Assembly (NCBI RefSeq): GCF_020520285.1
Contig: NZ_CP084742.1
Coordinates: 6,435,501-6,499,500 of the forward strand
Origin: Pseudomonas sp. L5B5
Lineage (GTDB): Bacteria > Pseudomonadota > Gammaproteobacteria > Pseudomonadales > Pseudomonadaceae
Length of the DNA stretch: 64,000 bases
Direction: 5' to 3'
The notes below the pieces were generated by a model. It saw only the letters and a list, made by a program, of their open reading frames with translations. It was not told the DNA's origin and did not search any database. The translations under genes and the position numbers were made by a program. Of this stretch, positions 21,750 to 56,721 are shown in pieces; within the stretch, counting starts at the first letter, position 1; each line of letters begins with the position of its first letter.

Positions 21750-21861
21750 GCCTGCGCCTGCTGGATTTTCCCTATGCCCAGGCATGGCAACTCCTGTATT
21801 GCCTGGCGCACCTGCAACCGTGCCTGGGGGACTGGCTGGTGGCCGGCCAGACCCACCTGTT
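21740..21861 (+). pseudogene. Possible 50-codon host ORF cut near its 3' end by the prophage
   Basis: An ATG overlapping the end of the EamA gene opens a frame (MGLSLRLLDFPYAQAWQLLY ...) that reaches the insertion site. Removing the prophage and one CTGTT copy restores ...HLF-VEPPWPHRR with a TAG at 56750-56752, giving 50 codons. With the prophage present it ends at a TGA at 21872-21874. The peptide has coding-like composition but no family I recognise, so it could be chance. Confidence 0.3.
21857..21861 (+). repeat. Target-site duplication, left copy (CTGTT)
   Basis: CTGTT directly precedes the prophage terminus and is repeated at 56717-56721. Five base pairs is the duplication length of Mu-type transposition. 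Confidence 0.92.
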
Positions 21862-21980
21862 TGTGAGGCAGTGAGAGATATGGCACTAAAGGAAACTGGT
21901 GGGAAGAAGAGGGAAGAAACAGGGTGAGGTAGGAAAGACGGGGGGTGGAGCCTGTTAGGTAGGAAATATCAGTGCCAAAT
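21862..21980 (+). other. Prophage left end with transposase-binding-like sites
   Basis: L1 (21878-21892) reads ATATGGCACTAAAGG and resembles the inward-read right-end site TTTGGCACCAACGG. A second site at 21972-21980 reads GTGCCAAAT, identical to the core of the right-end repeats but inverted relative to L1. Opposite orientation between left-end sites recalls the mixed orientation of Mu L sites. No gene lies between 21,875 and 22,051. Confidence 0.75.
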
Positions 21981-22013
21981 GAGGTGCGAAAGCAAAATTC
22001 CGTAGTGAGAATG

Positions 22014-22040
22014 AAAAGGCCCGTTTTAAGCGGGCCTTTT
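22014..22040. terminator. Rho-independent terminator after the repressor gene
   Basis: AAAAGGCCCG pairs perfectly with CGGGCCTTTT around a 7-base loop; T and A runs on the arms make it usable in both directions. It lies 11 bp past the repressor stop and shields the phage from rightward host transcription. Confidence 0.88.
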
Positions 22041-22051
22041 GGCGCTAGTGC

Positions 22052-22780
22052 TCAGATCATCCATCCGCCTGACCAGACTACCCTGCCAACCACCTGTAAG
22101 CGTTCCAAGCGGTCTGCCGACACGCTGATCGGCGGGTAGGCTGTGTTGGCGCTAATAACCATGACGCCGCCGTCCAACTGGCGCTGTAGCCGCTTGGCGT
22201 AGAGCAAGTCATCAAGGCGGATCACATAAACCCCTTCTCCTTGGATGACATTGCGGGAAAGGTCCACCATAACCGTGTCGCCGTCCTTCATAAATGGCTC
22301 GTTTGAATCGCCGTCTACGCGTACTGCGGCAAGCTCCGAGGGCGTCAGGCCCTTTTTGCGCAAGCTGTACTTGGTGAACGCTAGCATGGTCAGGATGCGG
22401 GCGCCCTCGCTCCATGCGGCATGACCCTGGTTGATGTAAGCATCATATAAAGGGACGTAGGCGTAAGTGTCTTCATCCTCTGCATGTTCTGGCTGTCTCT
22501 CACTGGGCAGCATCTCGCCTCGCCCTGACGCGATCCAGTCCAGGGATACCCCTACCGCAGACGCAAGAAGTGCCAGCGAGTTAAACGCTGGTACGCCTTC
22601 CCCCGCGATCCAGCGGTGAAGCGACGACAATCCCACATTCGCAGCTGCGGCAGCCTGTTTTCGGGATTCAAAAAGGTCAGCCACCGCCGCAATACGGGTT
22701 TCTATTCCCGTATTCGGAAAAGAAACCGCATTTTCGCCACGTGGAGGATGTTTCTTTTCTGTGTAAGTCACTGATTCCAC
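22052..22780 (-). CDS. Phage repressor, XRE HTH plus S24 LexA-like domain
   Basis: About 242 residues. The HTH is ESRKQAAAAANVGLSSLHRW followed by IAGEGVPAFNSLALLASAVG; the C-terminal half is an S24 peptidase-like dimerisation domain (DGDSNEPFMKDGDTVMVDLS, EGVYVIRLDDLLYAKRL). It matches C-type repressors of Pseudomonas transposable phages. The frame is open to a TTG at 22930, but the deduced promoter (-10 at 22828-22823) places transcription start near 22816, so I chose the GTG at 22780; a GTG at 22771 is equally possible. It should bind the nearby CCGNATNCGG operators and hold lysogeny. RecA-linked self-cleavage is possible but not shown. Confidence 0.85.
   Translation of the reverse strand: MESVTYTEKKHPPRGENAVSFPNTGIETRIAAVADLFESRKQAAAAANVGLSSLHRWIAGEGVPAFNSLALLASAVGVSLDWIASGRGEMLPSERQPEHAEDEDTYAYVPLYDAYINQGHAAWSEGARILTMLAFTKYSLRKKGLTPSELAAVRVDGDSNEPFMKDGDTVMVDLSRNVIQGEGVYVIRLDDLLYAKRLQRQLDGGVMVISANTAYPPISVSADRLERLQVVGRVVWSGGWMI
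22704..22720. promoter_or_regulatory. Distal copy of the repressor operator
   Basis: ATTCCCGTATTCGGAAA has the same CCGNATNCGG core as the three sites upstream, centred 105 bp (five times 21) from the nearest of them. It lies inside the 5' end of the repressor gene. A degenerate half (ATACGGG) is 20 bp further at 22692-22698. Confidence 0.6.
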
Positions 22781-22810
22781 GGGTTTTTTCCCAGTGCCCT
22801 CGATATAGAG

Positions 22811-22872
22811 ACCCAAATTCGGAATAAAAACTCCCGAATTCGGTTTACCAAGTCCCGTATACGGGATATATT
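22811..22872. promoter_or_regulatory. Overlapping divergent early/repressor promoters with three phased operators
   Basis: Operators CCAAATTCGG (22813-22822), CCGAATTCGG (22834-22843) and CCGTATACGG (22855-22864) are centred exactly 21 bp apart. Rightward promoter: TTTACC (22844-22849), 17-bp spacer, TATATT (22867-22872). Leftward promoter: TTGGTA (22851-22846), 17-bp spacer, TTTATT (22828-22823). Each spacer contains one operator, and the third covers the predicted repressor start. This is a genetic switch layout: repressor bound here would block the early promoter and control its own. Confidence 0.75.
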
Positions 22873-22929
22873 GTCCTGAACCGGCCGTTAGAGGGCCGAA
22901 AAAAACCACCCTTAGACGATGGTTATGCA

Positions 22930-23274
22930 ATGAAACCCTTCGACATACCGCTTGATATCGAAAGCCGCTGGGAGTGGATCAAATTCCAGCTCCGACTACG
23001 CGGAACAAATCTTGCCGAGCTGGCGCGAGAACATGGCCTGAATGATCGGGCGATCCGCAACGCGAAGAAACGGCCGTATCCGAGTGTGGAGCGGGCAATC
23101 GCCAAGGCCCTCGGGCTTGAGCCGGTCCAAATTTGGCCGGAACGCTGGAAAGATGGCGGCTTGCCCATTCGCCAGCGTCCGAACCGAGCTGAGTCCAATT
23201 CGGTATATCGAAAGCATACCGAAAAAGGTCCGGTTGGTCACAGTAAAACCCAGCGGAAAGACTCCGATGCGTAA
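22930..23274 (+). CDS. ner: Ner-like early transcriptional regulator
   Basis: 114 residues. The N-terminal 75 residues match the Ner/Nlp family: WEWIKFQLRLRGTNLAELAR, an HTH (HGLNDRAIRNAKKRPYPSVE) and the family ending LGLEPVQIWPERW. In Mu, Ner turns down the early and repressor promoters after infection. Here it is the first rightward gene, 58 bp after the early -10, as expected. The C-terminal 40 residues are basic and polar with no recognised domain. Its stop overlaps the transposase start (ATGCGTAA). Confidence 0.88.
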   Translation: MKPFDIPLDIESRWEWIKFQLRLRGTNLAELAREHGLNDRAIRNAKKRPYPSVERAIAKALGLEPVQIWPERWKDGGLPIRQRPNRAESNSVYRKHTEKGPVGHSKTQRKDSDA

Positions 23275-25312
23275 TTGGTATTCGTTGCAAGAGCTTGCAG
23301 GACTTCCGGGGCTTCCAGGCACAGTGCCTGGCATCCGAAAGCTTGCTGCGCGCCTCGGGTGGGAAGGTCAGAAACGTACCGGAAGCAAGGCATTGGAGTA
23401 TCCATTCTCCTGCTTGCCAGTCGAAACCCAGGCGGCCTTGATGGCTCAATCGGTTGCTGAGGCAAGGCCAACAGAAGCGTTAGCCCCTGTTGTGTCGCAA
23501 GTAGTTTTAGCGGCTAGAACTGAATCGGTAATACCTAAGTCGGTGTCACGGCTGAATGATGTTCAGCGAGAAGTCATGATCGCCCGGCTTTGTTTCATCC
23601 GTGAAATCGAACGGATGAGCGCCGTCAGTTCCCAAAAGCGGGCGATAGAAATTCTGGTGAGGCAGTCCCATGACGGCGCCCTTAGTCCGTACCTAATGAA
23701 CCGCCTTGAATTGGCGAACCACAAGAAATCGGATGACCGTGCCCTTTCTGAACGCACTCTCAAGCGTTGGATCGCTGCGTATCGTGTTAATGGGGAGGCG
23801 GGACTTGCTCCGTTGCGCCAGAGGCAGGGCCTAACTGTTCCTGAATGGGCGAAGGATTTTCTCAGGTGCTACCAGAGACCAACCAAGCCCAGCATTGCGG
23901 CAAGCTACACCGAGTTTGCGCGTGGCTATAAGGGCACGTTACCTAGCATTCACGCTGTCCAGCGCTTTCTGAAAAAACTGTCCCCTGAAGCCCTGCAAGC
24001 CGGCCGGATGAGCGCTCAAGAACTAAAAATGCTCCAGCCATTCCGGCGTCGGACCACAAAACATCTGTTTCCTGGTGATGTGTATACAGCTGACGGCCAC
24101 AAGTTCGACGCGGAAGTTATCAACCCAATTACGGGAAAACCTTACAGGCCGGAGATTACTACTGTCCTGGATGTGGCTACGCGTCGTGTGGTCGGCATTT
24201 CCGTGGGTGAGGCCGAGTCGGCAATTGGAGTGCTCGATGCCCTGCGGGATGCAGTGCGTAAATGCATGTTCGGCATTTTTTATGTCGACAACGGCTCTGG
24301 CTTCGACAACGACATGGTTCGAGAGGTGGTCGATCGGCTGGGCGGCACCATGCAGCATTCGATCCCCTATAACAGCCAGGCACGAGGGCTTTCGGAGCGA
24401 GGGCACCAGACCATATGGGTTCGGGCAGCCAAGAAACTGACGAGCTACATCGGTGCCGAAATGGACAAGCATGCGGGGACCCGAGTGCACCGCCTGGGTC
24501 GCAAGCAGCTCAAGGAGACTGGCGCCACTCGTTTGATGCCGACCTTTGGGGAGTTTATGGCTGGGGTTGAGGATGAAATCTCTACCTACAACAGAACACC
24601 ACACCGAGGGTTACAAAAGATTCGTGACCCTTACACAGGGATTCAGCGGCATCCAAGCCCCGACGAAGCTTGGCAGGCAGCGATTGATCAAGGCTGGGAG
24701 CCGATAGTCGCTACCCCGGAACTGGTTGAGTCGTTGATGCGACCGCAAGTGATCAGGAAAACCCATCGTGGCGAAATCCAATGGATGAGCCAGACCTATT
24801 TCCTTGATGGTCTTCGGTCCTTGCATGGTCAAGAAATACGGCTGGCATATGACGTTAGAGATGCTGAGCGTGTGTGGGCATATGCGTTAGACGGCGAGTT
24901 GATCGGTGAAGCCCGATTGGATGGTAACTCATCGGATTACATGCCAATGAGCATGGTGGAAAAGAGCCGGGCCAAGCGTGAGCAGGGTCAGGTCAAGCGC
25001 TCGGTAGATAAGCTGGAAACGTTGACAGGTCGCCGGGTCGAGATGATCGCACCTACCACAGCGCCGCCCGCAAACCTTTCGGTGGAGGCTCTGGAGGCTG
25101 CAAGAGAGTACGCAAAGTCATTAGAGCAGCAGCGCCCGGAATTCGTGATTCCTGGCGATGACGTGGCGCGATACAGGCTTTGGATTCAACTGGATCAGAA
25201 GAAAACGGCTGGGGAAGAGCTTAGCCAAGAAGAAGCCCGGTGGCATGAGCGATACCCAAACCACCAGGACTTCATTGCGATGCAAGAAGTATTTCAACAA
25301 CACGCGGGATAA
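23267..25312 (+). CDS. Mu-type DDE transposase (A protein)
   Basis: 681 residues, close to MuA (663). The N-terminal Mu HTH (NWYSLQELAGLPGLPGTVPG) is followed by a DNA-binding region and the RNase H-like core with D276 (YTADGHKFD), D341 (FYVDNGSGFDND) and E377 (GLSERGHQTIW), then the Mu beta-barrel C-terminal domain. Only 35 residues separate the second Asp and the Glu, against 55 in MuA. The start overlaps the ner stop; the frame is open upstream to 23042, but there it runs through ner. It catalyses strand transfer for integration and replicative transposition, using the end sites at 21.9 and 56.7 kb. Confidence 0.95.
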   Translation: MRNWYSLQELAGLPGLPGTVPGIRKLAARLGWEGQKRTGSKALEYPFSCLPVETQAALMAQSVAEARPTEALAPVVSQVVLAARTESVIPKSVSRLNDVQREVMIARLCFIREIERMSAVSSQKRAIEILVRQSHDGALSPYLMNRLELANHKKSDDRALSERTLKRWIAAYRVNGEAGLAPLRQRQGLTVPEWAKDFLRCYQRPTKPSIAASYTEFARGYKGTLPSIHAVQRFLKKLSPEALQAGRMSAQELKMLQPFRRRTTKHLFPGDVYTADGHKFDAEVINPITGKPYRPEITTVLDVATRRVVGISVGEAESAIGVLDALRDAVRKCMFGIFYVDNGSGFDNDMVREVVDRLGGTMQHSIPYNSQARGLSERGHQTIWVRAAKKLTSYIGAEMDKHAGTRVHRLGRKQLKETGATRLMPTFGEFMAGVEDEISTYNRTPHRGLQKIRDPYTGIQRHPSPDEAWQAAIDQGWEPIVATPELVESLMRPQVIRKTHRGEIQWMSQTYFLDGLRSLHGQEIRLAYDVRDAERVWAYALDGELIGEARLDGNSSDYMPMSMVEKSRAKREQGQVKRSVDKLETLTGRRVEMIAPTTAPPANLSVEALEAAREYAKSLEQQRPEFVIPGDDVARYRLWIQLDQKKTAGEELSQEEARWHERYPNHQDFIAMQEVFQQHAG

Positions 25313-25375
25313 AGATATCCCCGCCTAAAGGAAGTCGGCGTGTTGCAGCACGCCGGACTAGATAGGAGAAGCACA

Positions 25376-26098
25376 GTGAGTGTAGCGAAAATTGTTCCTT
25401 TGACAAATGTCGGTCTGTTGTCCGGCGCAATGAGTCGCGCTATGGCGCGTCCAGTAGGGCTGCCAGGACTGGTGGCTATGTATGGGCCAAGTGGTTATGG
25501 CAAGAGCGCTGCGGCGGCATTTTCCGCTAATCAGCATCGTTGCTATTACATCGAATGTCGCGATACATGGAGTAAAAAAGCGTTTCTGGACGCCATTCTT
25601 CGGGAGATGAGTCTACTGCCTTGCCGCACATTATCGGAAATGGTTGACCAGATCGCCGTCCAGCTTTCCACCTCGCGTCGCCCATTGATAGTCGATGATG
25701 TGCAATATCTGCTGGATAAGTCTGTCGCGAATGTGCTGACAGATATCTACAACGCGAGCGAAGGAACAATTGTCCTTATCGGCGAAGAGCGTGTTCCAGC
25801 ATCGCTTCAGCGTTTAGAGCGTTTACATAATCGTGTGCTGGAGTGGGTTCCCGCACAGGCAGCAACTCTCGACGATGTGCGCCAACTGGCGCGAGACAAC
25901 TATCCAGGTGTCAGTTTCGCAGATGACCTGTTGTCTGATTTGAATAACGCAACTAAGGGCTGCCTACGTCGAGTGGCGGTGAACCTCTACAAGGTCCAAT
26001 CCGAAGCTTCGGCAATGATGCTTGACCAAGTGGATTTGAAAGCTTGGGGAAAGCGTGGTTGGTACACGGGTGAGGCCCCTACCCGGAGGGCTGTGTAA
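25376..26098 (+). CDS. Transposition target ATPase (B protein), AAA+
   Basis: 240 residues. Walker A is GPSGYGKS at 37-44 and Walker B is PLIVDDVQYL near 105. The B family delivers target DNA to the transposase and gives target immunity. The start is a GTG at 25376 with AGGAGA 7 bp upstream; an in-frame start at 25340 lacks this. It lacks the N-terminal Xre-like domain of the longer Mu B (312 residues), as in B3-type phages. It is translationally coupled to the next gene (TAATG). Confidence 0.92.
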   Translation: MSVAKIVPLTNVGLLSGAMSRAMARPVGLPGLVAMYGPSGYGKSAAAAFSANQHRCYYIECRDTWSKKAFLDAILREMSLLPCRTLSEMVDQIAVQLSTSRRPLIVDDVQYLLDKSVANVLTDIYNASEGTIVLIGEERVPASLQRLERLHNRVLEWVPAQAATLDDVRQLARDNYPGVSFADDLLSDLNNATKGCLRRVAVNLYKVQSEASAMMLDQVDLKAWGKRGWYTGEAPTRRAV

Positions 26099-26886
26099 TG
26101 GCAGGCCGGAACCCTCAACTTATCGTTTCAGGCGGTAAGAGCCCAAAGCAGCGTATGTGGGAAGCAGTGCGCGTCTTGGCTCAAGGATTCAATGTTCACG
26201 ATATCGCAAGGCGTAGTAATCAAATGCCTTATGACATCGCTCGTTACCTTGATGCATTAACAAAGGCGGGTGTGGTCGAGATTGTGGAGGATGATTATTG
26301 CAAGGGGAAAACTCGCCTTTACAAGTTGGTCAAGGATGAGGGCGCCGAACACCCGCGCCTCAATAACAAAGGTGAGCGCACTTATGACCACCTGGCTACA
26401 GAGAATATCTGGCGTTCCCTTCGCATTCTTCGGGGGAATGTAACGGTTCGGGATGTAGTAAGTGCAGCGTCGGTTGGCACGGTGTCGCTTACGGCTACAA
26501 AGGTTAGACAGTACCTGAATGCCCTTAGTGAAGCTGGTTATTTGGCTAAGACTCCGTGTGATAGGCCCAGGGGGATTCCTGAGTTTTTCCGTCTCATCCC
26601 AAATAAAGACACCGGTCCTCGCCCTCCGGAGATTCGGCAGCTTGAGTCATTGCAGATTTACGACCCGAATCTCAATCGGCTGATTTACACGAAAACGACC
26701 GGTTCGCCCGGCGCGGATCGTAGTTTGATTGAGCCCAGTATCGATTTGGCGCGGACCCGAGAGCTATTGGGCGAATGGTTGACCTTGGCAAGCACTGCGA
26801 AGGGGCCTGTCCTGCTTCCGACTGACTTGGTGCAGCGAACTCAGCTTGAGTTGGCTTCACAGGAAGAGTCAGGGGGCTTGCAATGA
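26098..26886 (+). CDS. Early phage protein with two winged-helix-like modules
   Basis: 262 residues. Two similar segments suggest tandem DNA-binding domains: MWEAVRVLAQGFNVHDIARR ... YLDALTKAGVVEIV and IWRSLRILRGNVTVRDVVSA ... YLNALSEAGYLAKT. Each ends in a lysine/arginine-rich wing (YCKGKTRLYKLV; CDRPRGIPEFFRLI). The C-terminal 100 residues are unrecognised. Position right after B suggests a role in early replication or regulation; that is inference. Coupled to B (TAATG) and to the next gene (ATGA). Confidence 0.75.
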   Translation: MAGRNPQLIVSGGKSPKQRMWEAVRVLAQGFNVHDIARRSNQMPYDIARYLDALTKAGVVEIVEDDYCKGKTRLYKLVKDEGAEHPRLNNKGERTYDHLATENIWRSLRILRGNVTVRDVVSAASVGTVSLTATKVRQYLNALSEAGYLAKTPCDRPRGIPEFFRLIPNKDTGPRPPEIRQLESLQIYDPNLNRLIYTKTTGSPGADRSLIEPSIDLARTRELLGEWLTLASTAKGPVLLPTDLVQRTQLELASQEESGGLQ

Positions 26887-27260
26887 ACAAAGCCGTAAAT
26901 ATCTCGAAGTGGGGGGATGAGCCGCCGTTGTTCATCCGCTTGCTCGCTGCGGAAGTAACTGCGACTAACAGAACAAAGGCTGCGGCTCGGATCGGTATGA
27001 GTCGGTCTGCGGTGAGCCTAGTTCTTGGAAACAAATACCCAAGCCCAAGCACTGTCCGCGTTGAAAAGCGCGTTATGGATGTGCTCGGCCGTATTGAGTG
27101 TGTCGCCATTGGCGACACACTGACAGTCGAACAGTGCCAGGGGTTCTACCAGCGCCAGGCACCGACCCATAACCCACAGGCAATGCAGCATTGGCGAGTC
27201 TGCCAGCAGTGCCCGTTTAACCCGAACTGTGGAGGAAAAGCCAATGCAACAGTGCACTAA
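26883..27260 (+). CDS. Small HTH protein with a C-terminal cysteine cluster
   Basis: 125 residues. The N-terminal part has a helix-turn-helix (RTKAAARIGMSRSAVSLVLG, then NKYPSPSTVRVEKRVMDVLG). The C-terminus carries CQQCPFNPNCGG plus an earlier Cys, which could bind zinc or an iron-sulfur cluster. It overlaps the previous gene by ATGA. Probable DNA-binding accessory protein of the early operon; no closer assignment. Confidence 0.75.
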   Translation: MNKAVNISKWGDEPPLFIRLLAAEVTATNRTKAAARIGMSRSAVSLVLGNKYPSPSTVRVEKRVMDVLGRIECVAIGDTLTVEQCQGFYQRQAPTHNPQAMQHWRVCQQCPFNPNCGGKANATVH

Positions 27261-27729
27261 GCCAACTACTCAGATTCACCTGAAAGGCCCTGGCCTGATT
27301 CAGTTGATGTTCGCTGGTCAATGTGTCGGATTCGCGGTGTCCTACCGCTCTGCTGGTCATGTAGCTGATCAGTTAGACCAACTTTTTTCGTTGATTCCAA
27401 ATCGCAGTGTGAATTCTGGCGTTGATGCGACATCGGAAGTTTCGTTCGGTTCAATGGGCTCAGAAAAATGTGACATTTCTGGTCAGTGCCCGGTGCTGAC
27501 GCTTTGGGTTGTCGAGGCAAAGGACGGTACGCCAATCCGCTTTTTCACTTCGGAGAAAGTAGCGCGCTGGTTCCGGGATGCGGTCGAGACATACGACGAA
27601 ATGCGGCCGCCGACTGATGAAGGCGGGGAATGGTCGACTGCCCAAATTGACTGGTTCCGCAATCACCCGGCACCCATGGCGTCGGCCTGCGGTGGCTCGC
27701 TGACAGTCCGAAAGCTGGGGGTGCACTGA
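27244..27729 (+). CDS. Unrecognised early phage protein, 161 residues
   Basis: No family recognised. The N-terminus is beta-rich (TQIHLKGPGLIQLMFAGQCV), and the C-terminal half is acidic/aromatic (EKVARWFRDAVETYDEMRPP, TAQIDWFRNHP). The ATG at 27244 has GGAGGAA 7 bp upstream. It overlaps the previous gene by 17 bp and meets the next at TGATG-type junctions, so it belongs to the early operon. Confidence 0.7.
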   Translation: MQQCTKPTTQIHLKGPGLIQLMFAGQCVGFAVSYRSAGHVADQLDQLFSLIPNRSVNSGVDATSEVSFGSMGSEKCDISGQCPVLTLWVVEAKDGTPIRFFTSEKVARWFRDAVETYDEMRPPTDEGGEWSTAQIDWFRNHPAPMASACGGSLTVRKLGVH

Positions 27730-28220
27730 TGCGTACTCGTTGCCCGAACTGTGGTGCGACGCTTTCGCTCGATGCGCTGATTGCACACGACGGTGCTCGT
27801 GAGGCGCTGGGGGTGGCGTTCAAGCTATCCGGTTCTCTCGGGCATGCCTTGGTGCGCTACTTGGGCCTGTTCCGGCCGGAAACCCGAGAGCTGACTATGG
27901 ATCGAGTGGCAAAGCTGCTGGGCGAGCTGCTGCCTGACTTGCAGTCTCAGCGTATCGAGCGTGGCGGACAGGTCTTTCAGGCACCGCCTGAGTGTTGGAT
28001 CTGGGCGATTGATCAGACGTTGGCTGCACGTGAAGCCGGTCGCCTTGCAACGCCGCTGAAGGGTCATGGGTGGTTGTATCAGGTCATGAGCCAGTACCAG
28101 GCCAACGCCGTGACGCCGATTTTGGCACCAGAAATGAGGCAGCCGCCACGCTTGGCCCCGCGTCCGCAAAGCGCGACAGCCACGGCCGTGGCTGCGCTTG
28201 AGGAGCGAATGAATGGCTGA
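27729..28220 (+). CDS. Early phage protein with N-terminal CxxC zinc-ribbon half
   Basis: 163 residues. It opens with RTRCPNCGATLSLDALIAHD, a single CxxC knuckle, followed by a helical region (GHALVRYLGLFRPETRELT, DRVAKLLGELLPDLQ). Similar proteins occur in the early blocks of Pseudomonas Mu-like phages, where the role is not known to me. A replication-adaptor role would fit position but is not shown. Overlaps both neighbours by a few bases. Confidence 0.72.
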   Translation: MRTRCPNCGATLSLDALIAHDGAREALGVAFKLSGSLGHALVRYLGLFRPETRELTMDRVAKLLGELLPDLQSQRIERGGQVFQAPPECWIWAIDQTLAAREAGRLATPLKGHGWLYQVMSQYQANAVTPILAPEMRQPPRLAPRPQSATATAVAALEERMNG

Positions 28221-28695
28221 AAAGTGGTTCGTGCGAGCAATCGGCACGGGTCTTCAGGGGTTAGTCACTCTGCGTCTGGACGGTGCTCCCGCCGCAGATG
28301 CGGTGACTATGACACTCGATGTCTGGCTGATCGCGCTCACCAAGAACCGTCAGTGGGATGAGGAGCTGGATGCTGAGCGTATCAAGGCGACTTTCGAGTC
28401 ACTGTTTGCAGGCTGCGAAACCTGGCCGTCACCTGCTCGGTTTCTGCGTGATTTGAAACCTCGCAAGTTGCCGGTGGCGTTGCCGAAGCCAGAGCGAAGC
28501 ACTGAACAGTTGAAGAGCGGTAATGCGGCGCTGGACAACATCGTCGCGACCCTCAAGGGGCGGGCCGGCACTCAACGTGTCACCGCATTGAAGACAGATA
28601 AGCAGTTCGAATACTCCCGGCAGCGCTCGCAACAAGTCACCGCTGCGGAACTGAATAAACGGGATTCTCAATTTATGGAGCAACAAGACAAATGA
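28213..28695 (+). CDS. Unrecognised early phage protein, 160 residues
   Basis: It is helical and rich in charged residues; WPSPARFLRDLKPRKLPVAL in the middle resembles short motifs of phage replication accessory proteins, but I cannot assign a family. It starts 8 bp inside the previous gene and overlaps the next by ATGA, so it is co-translated within the early operon. Confidence 0.7.
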   Translation: MAEKWFVRAIGTGLQGLVTLRLDGAPAADAVTMTLDVWLIALTKNRQWDEELDAERIKATFESLFAGCETWPSPARFLRDLKPRKLPVALPKPERSTEQLKSGNAALDNIVATLKGRAGTQRVTALKTDKQFEYSRQRSQQVTAAELNKRDSQFMEQQDK

Positions 28696-29336: not shown

Positions 29337-29378
29337 TCCCCGATTTCTACCAATTCCCGAATCGAGAGAGTAGTCCAA

Positions 29379-29612: not shown

Positions 29613-29621
29613 GCGAAACCA

Positions 29622-29638
29622 CCCCGGCCTGACCGGGG
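29622..29638. terminator. Short hairpin in the early operon
   Basis: CCCCGG pairs with CCGGGG around a 5-base loop, 10 bp after the previous stop. No T run follows, so it is more likely an attenuator or mRNA-processing hairpin than a full terminator. Confidence 0.4.
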
Positions 29639-29688
29639 ATGGTCTGCCCGCCGTGGTGGCCGGGCACTGACGAGCAGCCGAGGACGAC

Positions 29689-30099: not shown

Positions 30100-30132
30100 G
30101 CGGCGACAACTTCGCGATAGATAGGACATCAC

Positions 30133-47517: not shown

Positions 47518-47545
47518 TGTATGAAAGTCTTTGGGAGATTCGTCG

Positions 47546-49795: not shown

Positions 49796-51120
49796 GTTGG
49801 GAAGAGAACTTGCTGGACGCCTCTTTTCGTGGTGTGCAATTCGACGTTGTTGAGGAAAGTACCCAGGCGGAGCGCTCGCTGGCTCAGCACGGGACGCCAT
49901 ACCAGGACGGCGATGCCGTTGAGGACCTTGGGCAAGGTGCTCGGGTTTACACGATGCGGGCCGTGCTGTTTGGCACCAACTATGAGTTTGAGCTGCGGTT
50001 GCTTCTCGGCGCGCTGGACATCCTCGGGCCAGGCGAGCTGGTTCACCCGGTGTATGGCAGTGTCACCGTCGTGTCGAAAGGCTACACCGTGCATCACAGT
50101 GCTGAGCGCCCTGACTATGCGCAGGTGGAGCTGCATTTCCTGGCGCATACGCCAGACGAGCCATTTTTTAACCGTGACCTCATCTACACCATCGAGCAAA
50201 AGCTGCTGGTGGAGGATGAGTACACCTGGCAGGACGGCGTTTTTGATTTTCTTGCTGCTATCGACAGCCTGGTAGCCCAGATTCAGGAATGGATTGGCGG
50301 CGGCTGGACGGGGTTACTTGAAAAAGCGCTAGGCCTGCCTGGTATCGGTTTGCGTTTGCAGCAGTTGCGTAGCCAGATTCTCGGCGTCGTATCTGGTGTT
50401 GTCGACCTGTTCAAGAGTAACCCGATCTCGGCCTTCGACCCGCTGACTGATCTGCTACGAACGCCTACCGAGATTCGTAGTGTCATCCAAGAGAGCACAC
50501 CCAGCACCTCCCGTGAGCTGCTCTCACGTACCGGCGTGCCGTTCGTGATGCCGGGAGGCGAAAGCCTGACCACTGGTGCGGCACGTGCAGGTTCTGCTTT
50601 CCTGCTGGCAGCTCAACAAGGTGTTGAACCTGATTCGGCGATACTGCCTGCTGAAATGCCGAGTGATCCGGTCGAAACGTCGGCCTTCGGGTTGGTCGTG
50701 CTGGTTATCACTGAGCTGGCTGTTTCGCACGCTCAGGCTGTGGCTGCTGTCATCGAGGGCGAGGCGGATACGCCAACGCTGAGCCCGGAAGATTTGGAGC
50801 GGCTGGTCAATCTAGCGCGCTCGCTGGCTGAGTCCGCGGTGCTACTGCACCGTCGCCTTTACGACGTCGAGTCCGCGTTGCCGGTCATTAACGCACTGCG
50901 TTCAGTTGCGGGCCTGGTGCAGGCGCGTGCTCGGTCAGTGATCTTGCTCAGCCCGCCACTCATTGAGCGAACTGTCTCTAGCGCTACCAGTCTGCGGCGG
51001 CTGGCCCATCACTGGTATGGCGATCATGTGCGTGCTGCCGAGCTGATGCGGCTCAATCCAGGGCTGAAGGCCCCACACAATATAGAAGCGGGAGAGGTGC
51101 TACGTGCCTACGCCAAATGA
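49792..51120 (+). CDS. Mu N-like DNA circularisation/tail protein
   Basis: 442 residues. The N-terminal domain (ENLLDASFRGVQFDVVEEST, HGTPYQDGDAVEDLGQGARV) is the DNA circularisation N domain of Mu N. The C-terminus ends in a LysM-like segment (LRRLAHHWYGDHVRAAELMR, LNPGLKAPHNIEAGEVLRAY). It lies at the base of the tube. ATGA overlap with the tape measure gene. Confidence 0.9.
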   Translation: MSWEENLLDASFRGVQFDVVEESTQAERSLAQHGTPYQDGDAVEDLGQGARVYTMRAVLFGTNYEFELRLLLGALDILGPGELVHPVYGSVTVVSKGYTVHHSAERPDYAQVELHFLAHTPDEPFFNRDLIYTIEQKLLVEDEYTWQDGVFDFLAAIDSLVAQIQEWIGGGWTGLLEKALGLPGIGLRLQQLRSQILGVVSGVVDLFKSNPISAFDPLTDLLRTPTEIRSVIQESTPSTSRELLSRTGVPFVMPGGESLTTGAARAGSAFLLAAQQGVEPDSAILPAEMPSDPVETSAFGLVVLVITELAVSHAQAVAAVIEGEADTPTLSPEDLERLVNLARSLAESAVLLHRRLYDVESALPVINALRSVAGLVQARARSVILLSPPLIERTVSSATSLRRLAHHWYGDHVRAAELMRLNPGLKAPHNIEAGEVLRAYAK

Positions 51121-52228
51121 CGCAATTCGCCTGACTATTGGCGGCATGACACACGCAACATGGGACGGGTGGTCCGTCGAGTCGGATCTGCTTACTCCGT
51201 CTGATGCATTTGAACTTGAGTTGTATGTTCGCGATACAGCGAAGCTGCCAGCGGTCTTGGTCGAGGGGGTAAGTTGTACGCTGAACCTAGGCCGGGATCG
51301 GGTTCTGACAGGACAAATCGACGAGTTCGAGCATGACGTCAGTCGGAATGGTATCGCAATCCGAATCAACGGCCGCGACGGCGCTGCCCCCCTGGTCGAC
51401 TGCTCTTGTCCTTTCGTATCGATGCGCGAGGCGTCGCTGGATGAGGTGATCAGCAAGGTGGTGAAGCCGCTAGGCATCAGCAAGATTGATGTTCGTCAGC
51501 CACAGTCGGCCAAAAAAGGGCGTCGTCGTGTTCAGATCGAGCCGGGGCAGACCGCTTGGGAAGCATTGCTACAGGCAGCCGAGGCAAGCGGTTTGTGGCC
51601 GTGGTTTGAACCCGATGGCACGCTGGTATTCGGTGGCCCGGACTATGACGCAGCGCCCGTCGACGGCCTGGTGCTGCGCTTGGACGGTATGGGAAACAAC
51701 GTTGAGCGTCTGTCTGTCCGGCGTTCAATCGCGAACCGCTACAGCCAAATCACCGTCCTCGGTCAGCACGGCCAATACGCTAATGATGGTCTGGATACAA
51801 AGCGCTCGCACCTTCAGTCGGTCATCAAGGACGAGACGTTGGCCCAGCGCGGCATCTTTCGGCCAAAGGTTGTAATCGACAACAGTACAGAGAACCAGAA
51901 TATGGCGACGACCCGTGCGCGGAAGCTGCTGGCGGACAGTCGTCTTGAAGGGTTCGAGATCCGCGCAATCGTCAAGGGATACCGGACAGCATCCGGCCAG
52001 GTCTGGAATCCCGGCCAACGGGTACACGTCTACAGCGAGCCGCATGGCTTGAATGCCGTTTATTTTCTGATGGCCCGCACAATGCGGCTCACTCGTGGGC
52101 AGGGTGCAATCACTGAGTTGCGGTTGAGGGAGGATAAAATGTGGGTGCTGGACGGGGCCAAGATCAAGAAGCACAAAGGCAAGTTAAACCCGGACGCTGC
52201 ATTCATCGAACAGATCAGGAGCGCCTGA
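51104..52228 (+). CDS. Baseplate hub protein (Mu P/gp44-like)
   Basis: 374 residues, starting at a GTG with GGGAGAGG upstream and overlapping the previous gene by 17 bp. NDAIRLTIGGMTHATWDGWS and DAFELELYVRDTAKLPAVLV at the N-terminus and the domain near EPGQTAWEALLQAAEASGLW match P-type hubs that link the tube to the spike. Confidence 0.9.
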   Translation: MPTPNDAIRLTIGGMTHATWDGWSVESDLLTPSDAFELELYVRDTAKLPAVLVEGVSCTLNLGRDRVLTGQIDEFEHDVSRNGIAIRINGRDGAAPLVDCSCPFVSMREASLDEVISKVVKPLGISKIDVRQPQSAKKGRRRVQIEPGQTAWEALLQAAEASGLWPWFEPDGTLVFGGPDYDAAPVDGLVLRLDGMGNNVERLSVRRSIANRYSQITVLGQHGQYANDGLDTKRSHLQSVIKDETLAQRGIFRPKVVIDNSTENQNMATTRARKLLADSRLEGFEIRAIVKGYRTASGQVWNPGQRVHVYSEPHGLNAVYFLMARTMRLTRGQGAITELRLREDKMWVLDGAKIKKHKGKLNPDAAFIEQIRSA

Positions 52229-52229
52229 G

Positions 52230-52772
52230 ATGACCGGGCTAGCGAGGCAGGTTCGTGAACAGGTACAGCGTGCTTTCCAGCAAGTGCGCCAGACATTCCG
52301 GGCAGTTGCCGCCAGTAACACTCAGGGCAAGCTCCAGGGCGTGCAGATGGAGGGCCTGGCCGGCGAGACAGTCGACGGTGAACTATTCCAGCACTATGGT
52401 TTCACCTCGGCACCGCTACCAGGTGCTGAGTACATCGTGATCCCGGTCGGCGGCAGCACCAACCACGCTGTGGTGGTTGCAAGTGAGGACGGTCGCTACA
52501 GGCTTGCGGTACAGGGCGGTGAGGTCGCGTTGTACACCGACGAAGGCGACCGCGTTCATATGAAGCGTGGGCGTGTGATTGAAGTAGAGACGGAGACTCT
52601 TTTGGTGAAGGCGACCACGAAAGTTAGTTTTGATACGCCTTTGATCGAGACGACCGGCGACATCAAGGCCATAGGCGAGATTGCAGACCATACTCGAACT
52701 ATGCAGGCCGACCGGGATATTTATAACGTCCATGGGCATAACCAAGGCCCTCCACCGGATAAGCAACAGTAA
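52230..52772 (+). CDS. Baseplate spike protein (Mu gp45-like)
   Basis: 180 residues. An N-terminal helix, an OB-like domain (VDGELFQHYGFTSAPLPGAE, YIVIPVGGSTNHAVVVA), then a beta-helix tail (VETETLLVKATTKVSFDTPL, IETTGDIKAIGEIADHT) and the tip HGHNQGPPP. The HxH at the tip binds iron in Mu and P2 spikes. It punctures the outer membrane. Confidence 0.92.
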   Translation: MTGLARQVREQVQRAFQQVRQTFRAVAASNTQGKLQGVQMEGLAGETVDGELFQHYGFTSAPLPGAEYIVIPVGGSTNHAVVVASEDGRYRLAVQGGEVALYTDEGDRVHMKRGRVIEVETETLLVKATTKVSFDTPLIETTGDIKAIGEIADHTRTMQADRDIYNVHGHNQGPPPDKQQ

Positions 52773-52830
52773 GACTCGGCTTAAATCCGGCTGAAACTCA
52801 CTAGCCGATAAACATTGTCATTCTGCCCGC

Positions 52831-53181
52831 ATGGACGCAGGTATAGACCCAAACACAGGCGATGCAACTGGACAGCGAATCTACACGCTGGCTAATGCCG
52901 TCTACATCAGAATCGCGACCCCTCTCGGGAGCTACTGGGCAGCTCCCGAGATTGGTTCCCGCCTGCATGAGCTGCGCCGTGAGAAAGATCTTTCTCGGGT
53001 CGGAAAGTTGGCCAAGCAATACGCAGAGGCCGCGCTAAAGCAACTGCTCGACGACAATCGCGCTACCGCCATCAGCGTAACAACTGAACAGCCCCATAAC
53101 GGCTGGCTCAATCTCGAAATCAAAGTCACTGACGCCACCGGCAATACGCAGGTGTTTCGTTTCCCTGTAAGGGTTATTTAA
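52831..53181 (+). CDS. Baseplate wedge protein (Mu gp46-like)
   Basis: 116 residues, GPW/gp25-like: VYIRIATPLGSYWAAPEIGS, RLHELRREKDLSRVGKLAKQ and YAEAALKQLLDDNRATAISV are the conserved core. It starts the wedge that connects sheath and baseplate. Confidence 0.9.
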   Translation: MDAGIDPNTGDATGQRIYTLANAVYIRIATPLGSYWAAPEIGSRLHELRREKDLSRVGKLAKQYAEAALKQLLDDNRATAISVTTEQPHNGWLNLEIKVTDATGNTQVFRFPVRVI

Positions 53182-54252
53182 ATGGCAATCTCGGTTCTTG
53201 CATTCGAAAGTATCCTTGGAAATATTCTGAGGGATATTCGCAACTTGCAGCCTGAGGCCGATATCGGCAAAGACAGTGACAATTACGCCCGCTCGGCGGC
53301 ATTTGCGGCGGCAGTCGAAGGGCTCTATCAAAAAGTTTCGTGGGTTTACCGGCAGATTTTCGCGGATACGGCAGATGATGAAGAGTTGCTGCATCACGCC
53401 GCGATTCAGGGGCTTTTTCAGAAAGGGTCTGTGGCGGCTACAGCGTCAGTACTGTTGAGTGGTGCGCCTGGTGTCAATCTGCTGCAAGGATCGACGCTCA
53501 CTCATGTCGCCACGGGCGAAAAGTTCGCGACGACTTCAAGTGCTCAGATTGGCCAGGATGGAACTGTGGCTGTCGGTGTAAGTGCTATTAAAGCCGGTTT
53601 TGCGCTTAATGGTTTAAGTGGTGAGCTTGTCGTCAATAGCCCGCCGTTGGCAATGTCCGGTGTCGCAAGTTTTGTCAGCGAAACTATTGGTGGTGATGAC
53701 CAGGAAAAAACCGAGTCCTTGCGGGGCCGGCTCCTGGAACTCATTCAGTCTCCACCGGCAGGTGGTACAGCTTATGACTTCAAGCGCTGGGCCAGAAGTG
53801 TGGACGGCGTTACCGATGCACTTGTGCTGCCTATGCGTCGCGGCGCGGGAACTGTCGATGTTGTGATTACCACAAGTAGCGGCAGCCCATCGGCCGAAGT
53901 CATAGCCAACTGCAAAGAGTTCATCTTGGGCAAATGTTCGGTGATTGCCGATGTGTGGGTTTATGCCCCAGTCGTCCGCACAGTCGATTCCACTGCTCTT
54001 GTAGAGCTGGAGGGCGGTTACAAGCTTGTCGACGTGCAAGCGGCTGCGCAGGTTGCATACAACGCCTTGCTTGGAGCGCTCAAGCCTCGCGAGATCCTCA
54101 GGCGCTCACAGATTGAGGCCATGCTCAACAATCTGGCCGGGGTTACGGATCGCTCCGTTACGGCCCCAGCCGGAAACGTCAAAGCCTCTGAAGACGCTAG
54201 CTTGATCGGTTGGATTCGCCCCGGAACCATCAAGTTGGGGCTGATGAGATGA
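53182..54252 (+). CDS. Baseplate J-like protein (Mu gp47)
   Basis: 356 residues. The J family hallmarks are ADTADDEELLHHAAIQGLFQ, TGEKFATTSSAQIGQDGTVA and GTAYDFKRWARSVDGVTDAL, ending RSVTAPAGNVKASEDASLIG. It is the main wedge component. Starts right after gp46. Confidence 0.92.
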   Translation: MAISVLAFESILGNILRDIRNLQPEADIGKDSDNYARSAAFAAAVEGLYQKVSWVYRQIFADTADDEELLHHAAIQGLFQKGSVAATASVLLSGAPGVNLLQGSTLTHVATGEKFATTSSAQIGQDGTVAVGVSAIKAGFALNGLSGELVVNSPPLAMSGVASFVSETIGGDDQEKTESLRGRLLELIQSPPAGGTAYDFKRWARSVDGVTDALVLPMRRGAGTVDVVITTSSGSPSAEVIANCKEFILGKCSVIADVWVYAPVVRTVDSTALVELEGGYKLVDVQAAAQVAYNALLGALKPREILRRSQIEAMLNNLAGVTDRSVTAPAGNVKASEDASLIGWIRPGTIKLGLMR

Positions 54253-54824
54253 CCAGTCTCGCAGACCAGCTCCGGCTGCTCCTTCCTCCGGTCTCATATA
54301 ACGGATCGGCGCCCCGCCTCTCGGCTGCGATTGAGGCTGAGGCTAGCGCGCTGACATCTGCCGAAGCCCATGCCGAGGCAGCTTACAGCGCCATTTTTGC
54401 CGACTCTGGAATGGGGCTTGCGGATTGGGAGCGTGTTCTTGCTTTGCCTGATCCTTGCCTTGCTGGTGTGCCGCAATCGGTTCGCCAGCGTGTGCAAGCG
54501 GTTGTCAGCAAGCTGCAAGGTCGTGGCGGTCAAAGCCGGTCCTTTTTTATCGCCCTGGCAAAGTCCCTCGGCTACGACATAACCATCGACACCTTTAGCC
54601 CTGCTCTTGCAGGCGTAGCGCGGGCTGGAGACCCAATCAATGGCGGCGACTGGGCGTTTGCCTGGCGTGTCAACGCACCGGCAGTGACGGTGAGCCGGGC
54701 CGTTGCAGGAATCACTGGAGCTGGCGACCCGCTGGCGTCCTGGGGCAATAGGCCCCTTGAGTGCAGGCTCAGCCAAATGAAGCCCGCCGAATCCATTCTT
54801 CTATTCGGTTACGGAGACAACTAA
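54249..54824 (+). CDS. DUF2313 baseplate protein (Mu gp48)
   Basis: 191 residues. LADQLRLLLPPVSYNGSAPR and GLADWERVLALPDPCLAGVP, then SFFIALAKSLGYDITIDTF are typical of DUF2313. It connects the baseplate to the fibres. ATGA and TAATG junctions on the two sides. Confidence 0.9.
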   Translation: MTSLADQLRLLLPPVSYNGSAPRLSAAIEAEASALTSAEAHAEAAYSAIFADSGMGLADWERVLALPDPCLAGVPQSVRQRVQAVVSKLQGRGGQSRSFFIALAKSLGYDITIDTFSPALAGVARAGDPINGGDWAFAWRVNAPAVTVSRAVAGITGAGDPLASWGNRPLECRLSQMKPAESILLFGYGDN

Positions 54825-56293
54825 TGCAAAAGATCGGTACAAGTACCACCACGGCAAACTCTCTCGGTGAATTTACCGAGGGCAGTCCAGGGGCCGGAGT
54901 AGCTGCAACTCTGATCAAGGCCGCATGGTTGAATGCGGTACAGCGGGAGTTAATTCGCTTGATTGAAGGGGCGGGTTTGAGCCTGGATGCAACTGATGAT
55001 TCTCAGCTGTTGAAGGCTGTACAGTCGCTTTTGACAGCCGCCAATACGTGGCAGAAGCTGGGCAATAAACCCTCCACCGTTGAGGGCTTCGGCATTACTG
55101 ATGCGCCGACAAAAAGCGAGTTGGCATTAGCGCTGAGCTACTTGGCGTCAAAGAAGGACGTTGCAGGGCTGCTGCCGACGAGCGGAGGAAAGCTTACAGG
55201 TTCTATTGTGCTCGACAATGGGAGCATCGATTCCCCGGAAATCTCATGGCAAACACCGGGGTTTGATATCCGGGTTGATGCTGTTGGTAAGACGTTAAGG
55301 TTCTTCGCTTTCAATGACGGCGTAACAACTTATCCGTTTGCGCTTGACGTGGTCAATAAAGCCGCTACTTTTTTCGGGAATACGGCCTGGCACGCCGGCA
55401 ACTTTAATCCGCAAGACAAGGCGAACAAGGCAACCAGTCTAGCGGGTTATGGCATTACGGACGGCGCAACAAAAAAAGAACTGTCTGATGGCCTGGCAAC
55501 TAAAGCGCATGTTAGCACAATTTTCAATAACGGCCCGATTGCCGGGGCATCGTCCAGGTTGAAACTTACAGCGGATGGTAATAGCTGCACTGTTTATGTC
55601 AACTTCGAGGAACTTACACTCAGGCACAACGATGGTAACTACCGATCAGTTTCGGCTTGGGGCGGTTCTGTAAATCTTTTGGCGTCAGGTGCCAATGGAC
55701 TGGACACGGGGGCGGTAGTGGCTTCACGGTGGTACTCGATCTGGATGATCGAGGCGCCCGGGGTTGCCTTTGCGCTGCTCGCTTCCCTGAGCGACACGGC
55801 GCCGGTTATGCCGCCTGGTTACACGGGTAAGGCCCGCTTAGGCTATGTGCGCACAGACAACACGGCTAACCGTTTTGTTTTGCCGTTTATTCAGCAAGGC
55901 AAGAAGGCGCAATATATGCCAGGTTCGGCCAATCTCCCGGCCTTCCCGGTTATCGTTGCCGGGGTTCAAGGAACTACGAACCCGATTGTACTTGTTCCTG
56001 TTTCTGTTGCTGCGCATGTTCCGCCAGGCGCGCTTTCTGTTTCGTTGACATCGCATTGCGCTAACGCTCCAACTTCTACTGTTTTCATTCACCCTAACGG
56101 CTCGTTAACTGGTGATTACTATGCACCTACCCCGCTAAATCATGTGGCATATTCCATTCAAAGTGTGGGCGCTCCAGGTTACTACGTGGCCACGTCAATG
56201 CCGATTGAAATGTGTTTGCAAGGCCAGAGTATTTACGTGGTCATAAATTCACCAAGCAATGGCATTACTGTTAACGGTTGGGAGTTATATTAA
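54824..56293 (+). CDS. Tail fibre protein
   Basis: 489 residues. The N-terminal 60 residues (AWLNAVQRELIRLIEGAGLS) are the conserved fibre attachment region; two copies of a fibre repeat follow (STVEGFGITDAPTKSELALA and SLAGYGITDGATKKELSDGL). The C-terminal 230 residues (from about 55,600) are AT-richer and unrecognised, as expected for a receptor-binding tip exchanged between phages. It determines host range. Confidence 0.9.
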   Translation: MQKIGTSTTTANSLGEFTEGSPGAGVAATLIKAAWLNAVQRELIRLIEGAGLSLDATDDSQLLKAVQSLLTAANTWQKLGNKPSTVEGFGITDAPTKSELALALSYLASKKDVAGLLPTSGGKLTGSIVLDNGSIDSPEISWQTPGFDIRVDAVGKTLRFFAFNDGVTTYPFALDVVNKAATFFGNTAWHAGNFNPQDKANKATSLAGYGITDGATKKELSDGLATKAHVSTIFNNGPIAGASSRLKLTADGNSCTVYVNFEELTLRHNDGNYRSVSAWGGSVNLLASGANGLDTGAVVASRWYSIWMIEAPGVAFALLASLSDTAPVMPPGYTGKARLGYVRTDNTANRFVLPFIQQGKKAQYMPGSANLPAFPVIVAGVQGTTNPIVLVPVSVAAHVPPGALSVSLTSHCANAPTSTVFIHPNGSLTGDYYAPTPLNHVAYSIQSVGAPGYYVATSMPIEMCLQGQSIYVVINSPSNGITVNGWELY

Positions 56294-56649
56294 TGAGCTA
56301 TGCAGTTAGAAAAGATGGCCAGGGCTTCCGCGCTATTGACGGGCCGGACGATGTTGAATCGCATGAAACGTATTGTGAAGGTGCGCCGCCTGCTCCGGTG
56401 GCCTTGCCGCCCAGCCACGAGGAAGCGACGCGCAAGGCACGGGACACGCGGGACCAGTTGCTGGTTGTGGCGGCAAATCGAATGGGGCCGCTTCAGGACG
56501 CGGTAGACCGCAAGAGGGCCACCGCCACCGAGGTCGAGTTGCTCGGGCAATGGAAAGACTATCGGATCGACTTGAACCGCGTGGAACAGCAGAAAGGTTT
56601 TCCAGCACAAATTGACTGGCCGCTATCGCCCGGTGAGGTCGTGTCCTGA
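56293..56649 (+). CDS. Tail fibre assembly chaperone
   Basis: 118 residues. YAVRKDGQGFRAIDGPDDVE at the N-terminus and a C-terminal VELLGQWKDYRIDLNRVEQQ, KGFPAQIDWPLSP match the Caudo_TAP/Mu U-type family (the ending W-P is typical). It folds the fibre encoded just upstream (TAATG). It is the last phage gene, 67 bp before the right end. Confidence 0.9.
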   Translation: MSYAVRKDGQGFRAIDGPDDVESHETYCEGAPPAPVALPPSHEEATRKARDTRDQLLVVAANRMGPLQDAVDRKRATATEVELLGQWKDYRIDLNRVEQQKGFPAQIDWPLSPGEVVS

Positions 56650-56662
56650 ATGACCAGCAGAG

Positions 56663-56716
56663 CCCGTTGGTGCCAAATACGGCGCCCGTTGGTGCCAAAT
56701 ACGGCGCGCGCTTACA
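56663..56716 (+). other. Prophage right end with two tandem 22-bp transposase-site repeats
   Basis: 56663-56684 and 56685-56706 are identical and adjacent; the core GTTGGTGCCAAATACGGCG is shared. The box GTGCCA of the outer copy ends 19 bp before the terminus, mirroring the left end. These are the expected R1 and R2 sites for the transposase. Confidence 0.85.
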
Positions 56717-56721
56717 CTGTT
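56717..56721 (+). repeat. Target-site duplication, right copy (CTGTT)
   Basis: Same five bases as 21857-21861, directly after the terminal ACA. Confidence 0.92.

What the first reader, a model, noticed from the sequence alone, without database searches (positions are those of the whole stretch)
21857..56721. Exact ends of the transposable prophage fixed by a 5-bp duplication
CTGTT at 21857-21861 and again at 56717-56721 flank an element that begins TGTGAGG and ends CTTACA. Both inward-read ends start TGT and both have TGGCAC starting at the 20th base. The duplication, the termini and the mirrored spacing agree independently, so the element is 34,855 bp with no ambiguity. This is unusual precision for a prophage read by eye and shows integration by transposition, not by site-specific recombination.
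Basis: partly seen in the sequence, partly recalled or inferred. Interest (0 to 1): 0.75.

Follow-up and report, generated by a model that had tools for sequence, protein, structure and literature searches.

The report
Mu-like prophage with exactly defined ends
The stretch is a Mu-type jumping bacterial virus whose two ends can be placed to the base, and comparing its relatives shows that a transposase docking site at the left end keeps its distance from the first one in steps of about one DNA helix turn.

Summary
CTGTT (21857-21861, 56717-56721) flanks a 34,855-bp element, 21862-56716; both ends read TGT with TGGCAC at bases 20-25. It is a Mu-type transposable prophage: MuA-like transposase of the DMS3 lineage, B-type ATPase, Mu-like head, contractile tail. 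Thirty-seven other elements have the same kind of ends and perfect 5-bp duplications.

The new part is inside the ends. On the right, site R2 is fixed and R3 nearly so. On the left, an inverted site (L2) and a direct site (L3) follow L1 at varying distances, yet L3 keeps to an 11.25-bp lattice in 73 of 74 non-redundant elements (33 expected), through at least 20 changes on the transposase tree. The L1-L2 spacer carries GG steps every 10.3 bp, locked to L1. I read this as a phased, bent DNA loop in the transposition complex: likely, unproven.

The parts
21862..56716 (.). Mu-type transposable prophage, 34,855 bp
   Evidence: empty sites; G+C 57.9% against 65.4% and 65.7% in the flanks; left end occurs once in the own genome
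21857..21861 (.). left copy of 5-bp target duplication CTGTT
   Evidence: single copy in empty sites
56717..56721 (.). right copy of 5-bp target duplication CTGTT
21879..21887 (+). L1 transposase-site core (base 18 from the left end)
   Evidence: weight matrix score 15.9
21888..21970 (+). L1-L2 spacer with GG steps about every 10 bp
   Evidence: family profile; the window's own spacer is printed, its single result not reported
21971..21979 (-). L2 site core, inverted relative to L1 (base 110)
   Evidence: score 19.0
22038..22046 (+). L3 site core, direct (base 177, third lattice position), next to an inverted repeat that looks like the repressor's terminator
   Evidence: score 11.6; lattice; terminator read by eye
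56669..56677 (-). R2 site core (base 40 from the right end)
   Evidence: score 23.7
56691..56699 (-). R1 site core (base 18 from the right end)
   Evidence: score 23.7; no R3 near base 86 in this copy
22052..22930 (-). CI/S24-type repressor (start codon uncertain)
   Evidence: PF00717 3.7e-19; phrog_4 6e-44
22930..23274 (+). small transcriptional repressor, Ner-like by position
   Evidence: phrog_769 3.9e-28; 'Ner-like' is inference
23267..25312 (+). transposase A (MuA/DMS3 type; likely start at 23267, not 23042)
25340..26098 (+). B-type AAA ATPase, transposition protein
   Evidence: phrog_296 2.3e-57; PF13401
31208..31660 (+). late transcription activator (Mor/C type)
   Evidence: phrog_532 8.1e-31
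32330..33672 (+). endolysin and Rz-like spanin
   Evidence: phrog_669, phrog_1403
34370..43314 (+). head module: small and large terminase, portal, minor head, neck, protease, major head
   Evidence: PF11985 Mu Gp27; phrog_426
45251..54824 (+). contractile tail module: sheath, tube, tape measure, hub, Mu Gp45-like spike, baseplate wedges
   Evidence: phrog_165 3.5e-111 and others; PF06890
54761..56649 (+). tail fibre and fibre assembly chaperone, last genes before the right end
21740..21874 (+). host small ORF (50 codons in relatives) cut by the insertion; here it ends HLFVRQ instead of HLFVE...

Best explanation
An apparently complete Mu-type transposable prophage of the DMS3 transposase lineage with a Mu-like contractile tail inserted at 21857-21861 by staggered 5-bp strand transfer. 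The transposase joins the DNA 17 bp outside the first TTTGGCAC core (L1 and R1), which fixes the termini. SHOWN: the ends, the duplication, the empty site, the transposase and its invariant acidic residues, the family-wide site layout (left L1 direct, L2 inverted, L3 direct; right R1, R2 and usually R3, direct). INFERRED, about 60% likely: L1, L2 and L3 are brought together by looping of left-end DNA inside the transposition complex; L3 can move only by whole helical turns (about 11.25 bp each), and the spacer next to L1 carries phased GG and A/T steps that make it bend, in the place where Mu has an HU site.
For: Ends and duplication. Empty sites: L035, L036, L037. Family: of 20 other transposase hits in 398 genus genomes, 14 have the paired ends and a perfect 5-bp duplication, a fifteenth (G319) when the right arm was searched further, one 4 of 5 (G163), two have a right end without matching flanks and two no right end found. 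In 28 genomes behind 35 of the 80 loci, a right-end pattern gave 50 places, 30 of them readable as loci; 22 of these 30 carry exactly the duplication of a left end found separately in the same genome. Right sites: R2 at 40 in 38 of 38 right ends (16, 22); R3 at 86-87 in 28, one turn nearer (75-76) in 2, none in 8. L3 lattice: 75 of 82 non-redundant left ends give an L3; eight modes from 154.2 to 233.0, 0 of 3000 random mode sets as regular, fitted step 11.22; at least 20 changes of state on the tree; 73 of 74 within 2.5 bp, period 11.25 (bootstrap 11.10-11.45), 0 of 4000 simulations. L3 sites were not used to train the matrix. Hold-out of 8 new ends: 7 within 2 bp, P 0.0017. The 176-178 position is reached with L2 near 100, 110, 121 and 130, as expected if L1-L3 phase is what counts. 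GG comb: lag-10 z 18; individually significant in 51 of 90 ends, 0 of 46 in right-end interiors; stronger anchored on L1 than on L2. Precedents: HU site in Mu's L1-L2 spacer (PMC10122671, passages); 11 bp per turn for loops in supercoiled bacterial DNA (PMC8501960, passages); helically periodic effect of site spacing in I-F CAST ends (PMC10201428, passages).
Against: No experiment: nothing here shows excision, transposition, HU binding or bending. The comb period (10.3) and the lattice step (11.25) differ, which the loop model does not explain by itself. The six L2 modes, each taken once, do not pass the regularity test (P 0.16), so the lattice claim rests on L3. The hold-out is small and falls in modes already known. 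Strains with altered supercoiling did not much change the best lac-loop spacing (PMC5081198, passage), so tying 11.25 bp to supercoiling is uncertain. The comb was not significant in Mu, D3112, DMS3 or B3 tested singly, and in 39 of 90 ends of this family it was not either. Seven of 82 left ends gave no L3 and 20 no L2 above threshold. Eight of the 30 right-end loci had no matching left duplication. This copy lacks R3. The comb control is mostly tail-gene sequence and so not matched in kind; shuffles are the main null, and they keep single-base composition only.
Confidence: 0.9

Rival explanations
1. The 11-bp lattice reflects gain and loss of an 11-bp repeat unit in the left end (slippage), not selection for helical phase.
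For: The L1-L2 spacer is repetitive, with GG at regular intervals.
Against: Its self-similarity peaks at lags 10, 20 and 30 (z 18.0, 12.8, 10.7) and is weak at 11 (2.9); the L2-L3 stretch, whose length also changes, has none at 11 (z 0.0). In two relatives with the same first 35 bases, L221 and L227, L3 differs by 10 bp while the pair aligns without gaps and with diverged sequence between L2 and L3, so no added repeat is visible. The two right ends in which R3 has moved also moved by about one turn.
Confidence: 0.2
2. The GG comb is an array of protein-binding repeats (iterons) for a phage or host regulator, and its helical spacing only puts the proteins on one face.
For: In some members the unit is nearly constant (CCGGAAGAA), as in L145.
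Against: Across the family the unit varies while a GG period of 9.9-10.6 is kept in all five L2 classes (8 to 17 ends each); A/T steps lie about 0.6 turn away from GG, as in bendable DNA (the comparison with bendable DNA is recalled).
Confidence: 0.25
3. The two CTGTT copies are a coincidence and the prophage has other ends or was inserted by site-specific recombination.
For: A second TGT/ACA pair with a shared 5-bp flank exists near the ends.
Against: That pair has no TGGCAC in register; empty sites join exactly here; 37 other elements obey the same rule.
Confidence: 0.01

Closest known systems
Casadabanvirus (DMS3, D3112 and relatives)
   Same: Transposase about 38% identical to that of DMS3 over 90% of its length; both DMS3 ends start TGT and have the core at base 18 (TTTGACAC, TTTGGCGC); D3112 has a site at 18 and a direct one at 152 once three extra record bases are allowed for; repressor, A, B and head gene order of DMS3.
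   Different: Those phages have flexible tails (PMC4378225, passages), this one has a contractile tail module; only one short megablast match in each of two searches of 50,697 phage records; the published sites of the D3112 group are placed differently (L1-L3 direct, at 10, 93, 124).
Muvirus (phage Mu)
   Same: DDE transposase, 5-bp duplication (recalled for Mu), Mu-type head, contractile tail with Gp45-like spike, left end with long L1-L2 spacer; Mu's spacer holds an HU site (PMC10122671, passages).
   Different: Only the N-terminal domain of A matches a Mu transposase structure by sequence (1tns); the Mu left end gives no site of score 4 or more with this family's matrix.
Tn7-like type I-F CRISPR-associated transposon ends
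   Same: Roughly 10-bp periodic dependence on the spacing of transposase sites, and an architectural protein (IHF) site in the left end (PMC10201428, passages).
   Different: Different element and transposase; the periodicity there was measured by mutagenesis, here it is read from natural variation, with a longer period.

Membership tests
Mu-type transposable phages | DDE transposase with MuA-type domains | tested here: met
   PF02316, PF09299 above cut-off; rve below its cut-off; D276, D341, E377 (numbered from 23267) invariant in 18 sequences; naming them the catalytic triad rests on recalled MuA residues
Mu-type transposable phages | B-type ATPase next to A | tested here: met
   phrog_296, PF13401
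Mu-type transposable phages | termini TGT...ACA and 5-bp target duplication | tested here: met
Mu-type transposable phages | many different target sites | tested here: met
   37 distinct duplications among 38 elements
Mu-type transposable phages | replicative transposition and host DNA at virion ends | not testable with these tools
   needs induced phage
Casadabanvirus (D3112 group) | homologous transposase and end sites in register | tested here: met
Casadabanvirus (D3112 group) | flexible non-contractile tail | tested here: not met
   sheath, tube, baseplate genes; none of 7 DMS3 tail proteins matched the window's right arm at 1e-6
Muvirus | contractile tail of Mu type | tested here: met
   phrog_165, PF06890
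Muvirus | Mu-type end sites | tested here: not met
   Mu left end has no site scoring 4 or more with this family's matrix; Mu right end not examined
Muvirus | target preference N-Y-S-R-N (recalled) | tested here: inconclusive
   pyrimidine at 2 in 23 of 38, purine at 4 in 21 of 38; G or C at position 1 in 31 of 38

The most novel reading that the evidence does not exclude
Natural variation at the left ends of this phage family records the helical repeat of a DNA loop inside a working transposition complex: about 11.25 bp per turn, near the underwound value reported for looped supercoiled DNA in living bacteria, with the bend that starts the loop written into the DNA as a GG/A-T comb locked to the first transposase site.
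Probability: 0.5. Interest if true: 0.65.

Novelty: new variant of a known kind. Interest (0 to 1): 0.42.

Why it matters
The prophage itself is an ordinary, well-bounded Mu-type element. What matters is the family comparison: a nearly fixed right end and a left end whose third site moves only in helical turns is a natural mutagenesis experiment on the geometry of a transposition complex. Structures of Mu complexes leave out the long left spacer (recalled), so this gives a direct test of how the left end is folded, and a working rule for finding exact prophage ends in genomes (TGT, core at base 18, 5-bp duplication).

Tried and rejected
Nucleotide search for a known phage: one short hit in each of two searches, 50,697 records. 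Left flank alone in relatives: the EamA gene was not seen next to the fecI-like gene in the first 19 relative loci; the joined junction was needed. Looking for a gene in the gap between neck and protease (40709-41002), where DMS3 has an anti-CRISPR gene: no ORF of 60 aa or more lies wholly in it. DMS3-like tail genes in the elements without baseplate homologues: none except one weak tape-measure hit in L117, so their tail type is open. A comb in Mu, D3112, DMS3, B3: not significant singly. Further viral scans returned nearly the same contigs and I did not add their few new ones, so the hold-out stayed small. The reading frame I first took for the cut host ORF (21733) was wrong; the conserved one starts at 21740. 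Mu target consensus: not clearly followed.

Parts left out: one search was given the loci whose match begins far enough from the contig edge and near the protein's start (L181, L185, L186, L188-L192, L195-L198, L201 and viral loci with short upstream DNA were dropped); ends scoring under 8 were dropped; one search took 107 ends in 82 clusters; one search kept 81 transposases, of which 74 have an L3. In one search only the loci with enough upstream DNA were given. In one search, 35 of the 80 loci were given, mainly leaving out those already studied under G handles and those without a good left end.
Full report
CHECK. The window lies in a complete 6.81-Mb genome in which the left end occurs once. 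CTGTT at 21857-21861 and 56717-56721 flanks 21862-56716, 34,855 bp; both inward ends start TGT and have TGGCAC at bases 20-25. Near the ends two TGT/ACA pairs share a 5-bp flank, but only this pair has TGGCAC in register.

EMPTY SITE. The joined host flanks were searched in 398 genomes of the genus; 13 matched, the own genome included. L035 aligns over 552 bp at 86% through the junction, CACCTGTTCGTCGA, with a single CTGTT; L037 (CTGTTCGTT) and L036 (CTGTTTGTC) also run well past both sides; L038 and L039 align only 13 bases past it. The insertion cuts a small host ORF of 50 codons that five relatives conserve (...GDWLVAGQTHLFVE...); in the window it ends HLFVRQ. Downstream lie an ECF sigma factor, FecR and a TonB receptor.

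WHAT IT IS. Repressor with S24 peptidase domain on the minus strand, a small second repressor, transposase A, AAA ATPase B, late activator, lysis genes, Mu-type head genes, contractile tail with Mu Gp45-like spike, fibre and chaperone. None of the 44 phage ORFs scanned hit an integrase family other than transposase. A is about 38% identical to the DMS3 transposase over 90% of its length; 163 of 50,697 phage records match it, one above 60%, and the element has almost no nucleotide match there. A probably starts at 23267 (MRNWY), as relatives do. D276, D341 and E377 are invariant in 18 sequences. Transposase lineage and tail type are combined differently from D3112 (flexible tail, PMC4378225, passages) and from Mu. 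Among the 20 related elements, 13 have homologues of the window's baseplate proteins in the stretches fetched and 7 have none at 1e-6. Of these 7, three (G273, G200, G261) have confirmed ends but their middle part was not fetched; G319 and G008:C3 match the tape measure but no baseplate protein; G279 matches only the major head protein; the second G367 copy has no right end found. So the ends and transposase probably travel with more than one tail module.

THE RULE IN RELATIVES. For the 20 other hits I took about 5 kb on the left and 20 kb on the right, and a further right stretch for six. Fourteen have paired ends in register (TGGCAC, in G261 TGGCAT) with perfect 5-bp duplications; G319 is a fifteenth; G163 matches in 4 of 5; G279 and G008:C3 have right ends with unmatched flanks; G242 and the second G367 copy gave no right end. 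In 28 further genomes, pattern GTGCCAAAN11CTTACA with one mismatch allowed gave 50 places in 23 of them, 30 as loci; 22 of the 30 carry exactly the duplication of a transposase-anchored left end in the same genome. I did not resolve the other eight: L298 and L310 look like chance hits, others may belong to elements outside my set or to ends whose flanks no longer match (L303 against L129). With the window this makes 38 elements, 37 distinct duplications, in Pseudomonas, Stutzerimonas, Halomonas-type hosts and one Sterolibacterium bin (titles). In DMS3 the core sits at base 18 in both ends too.

SITE LAYOUT. A weight matrix from 72 sites (core TTTGGCAC; L3 not used) finds right sites at 18 and 40 from the end, usually a third at 86, all direct, and left sites L1 at 18 (direct), L2 (inverted) and L3 (direct). 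The window has L1 18, L2 110, L3 177, R1 18, R2 40, no R3. Over 38 right ends (16, the 22 with duplications), R2 is at 40 in all, R3 at 86-87 in 28, at 75-76 in 2 (G273, L302), and not found in 8.

LATTICE. 107 left ends in 82 clusters: L3 found in 75, L2 in 62, above the 99th percentile of shuffled ends (single-base shuffles). L3 falls in eight modes: 154.2, 165.5, 176.6, 187.6, 198.6, 210.0, 221.5, 233.0; 0 of 3000 random mode sets were as regular. Straight-line fit: step 11.22 bp, residuals under 0.4. The L2 modes taken once each do not pass the same test (P 0.16), so the claim rests on L3. On a quick tree of 81 transposases the state changes at least 20 times. Of 74 ends, 73 lie within 2.5 bp of the lattice (33 expected); period 11.25, bootstrap 11.10-11.45; at 10.5 bp the fit is clearly worse (0.61 against 0.89); 0 of 4000 simulations with 21 independent origins matched. 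Of 27 ends found in a later scan, 8 were new and non-redundant, 7 within 2 bp. The same L3 position is combined with four L2 positions.

COMB. The L1-L2 spacer repeats itself at lags 10, 20, 30 (z 18.0, 12.8, 10.7; 62 spacers). GG frequency is high at 21 (the core), 27-32, and peaks near 41, 52, 62, 71, 82, 92, with A/T steps about 0.6 turn away; 51 of 90 ends are individually significant at 0.05, 0 of 46 in the interior of the right end (mostly tail-gene sequence, so a loose control). The profile is stronger anchored on L1 (4.74) than on L2 (3.26), null maximum 1.47, with periods 9.9-10.6 in the five L2 classes. Mu, D3112, DMS3 and B3 tested singly show no significant comb.

MECHANISM. Shown: ends, duplication, layout, lattice, comb. 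Inferred: A subunits on L1, L2, L3 are assembled on a bent loop; whole turns can be added, half turns cannot. Mu has a long L1-L2 spacer with an HU site (PMC10122671, passages) and needs supercoiling for its complex (PMC3820752, passages). Loops in supercoiled bacterial DNA show 11 bp per turn (PMC8501960, passages), though one study saw no large change of spacing among supercoiling mutants (PMC5081198, passage). A helical effect of site spacing has been measured in CAST ends (PMC10201428, passages). The 10.3 against 11.25 bp difference is unexplained.

NOVELTY. Searches of the paper library for Mu-like ends, helical spacing and related terms listed nothing that I recognised as describing this lattice; for most papers I saw the listing only, and most subscription journals are missing, so this is weak evidence of absence. 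The prophage is a new member of a known kind; the left-end organisation is a new variant resting on a known principle.

Noticed in passing
21740-21874 (host, cut by the prophage): A 50-codon ORF overlapping the end of an EamA transporter gene is conserved in five relatives (MGLSLRL...CLAHL...CLGDWLVAGQTHLFVE...SR) upstream of a sigma factor/FecR/TonB-receptor locus; function unknown, the cut copy has no PHROG match and was not tried against Pfam in this frame.
   Followed up: partly
40709-41002: A 293-bp gap between neck and protease genes corresponds to the place where DMS3 carries an anti-CRISPR gene; no ORF of 60 aa or more lies wholly in the gap here. The same spot in the relatives was not examined.
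   Followed up: partly
G367 C1:4149525 and C1:4229339 (loci L069, L073): One genome holds two inversely oriented hits, about 80 kb apart, with the same score and identity to the window's transposase; the second has the same first 40 bases at its left end but no right end was found.
   Followed up: partly
G273 (L098) and L302, right ends: In these two right ends the third site lies at 75-76 instead of 86-87 from the end, about one helical turn nearer: the right end may follow the same rule as the left.
   Followed up: no
L128/L164, L133/L166, L122/L127, L143/L145/L157/L169: Several genomes carry two to four different elements of this family.
   Followed up: no
L130 (MAG labelled Phycisphaerae): A left end with the same first 30 bases and the same site positions as a Pseudomonas one (L164) in a bin labelled Phycisphaerae: probably mis-binned.
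   Followed up: no
27229-27729, 31777-32097, 35017-35550: Early and pre-terminase ORFs with no Pfam match; the first and third have no PHROG match either, the second only a family of unknown function.
   Followed up: partly
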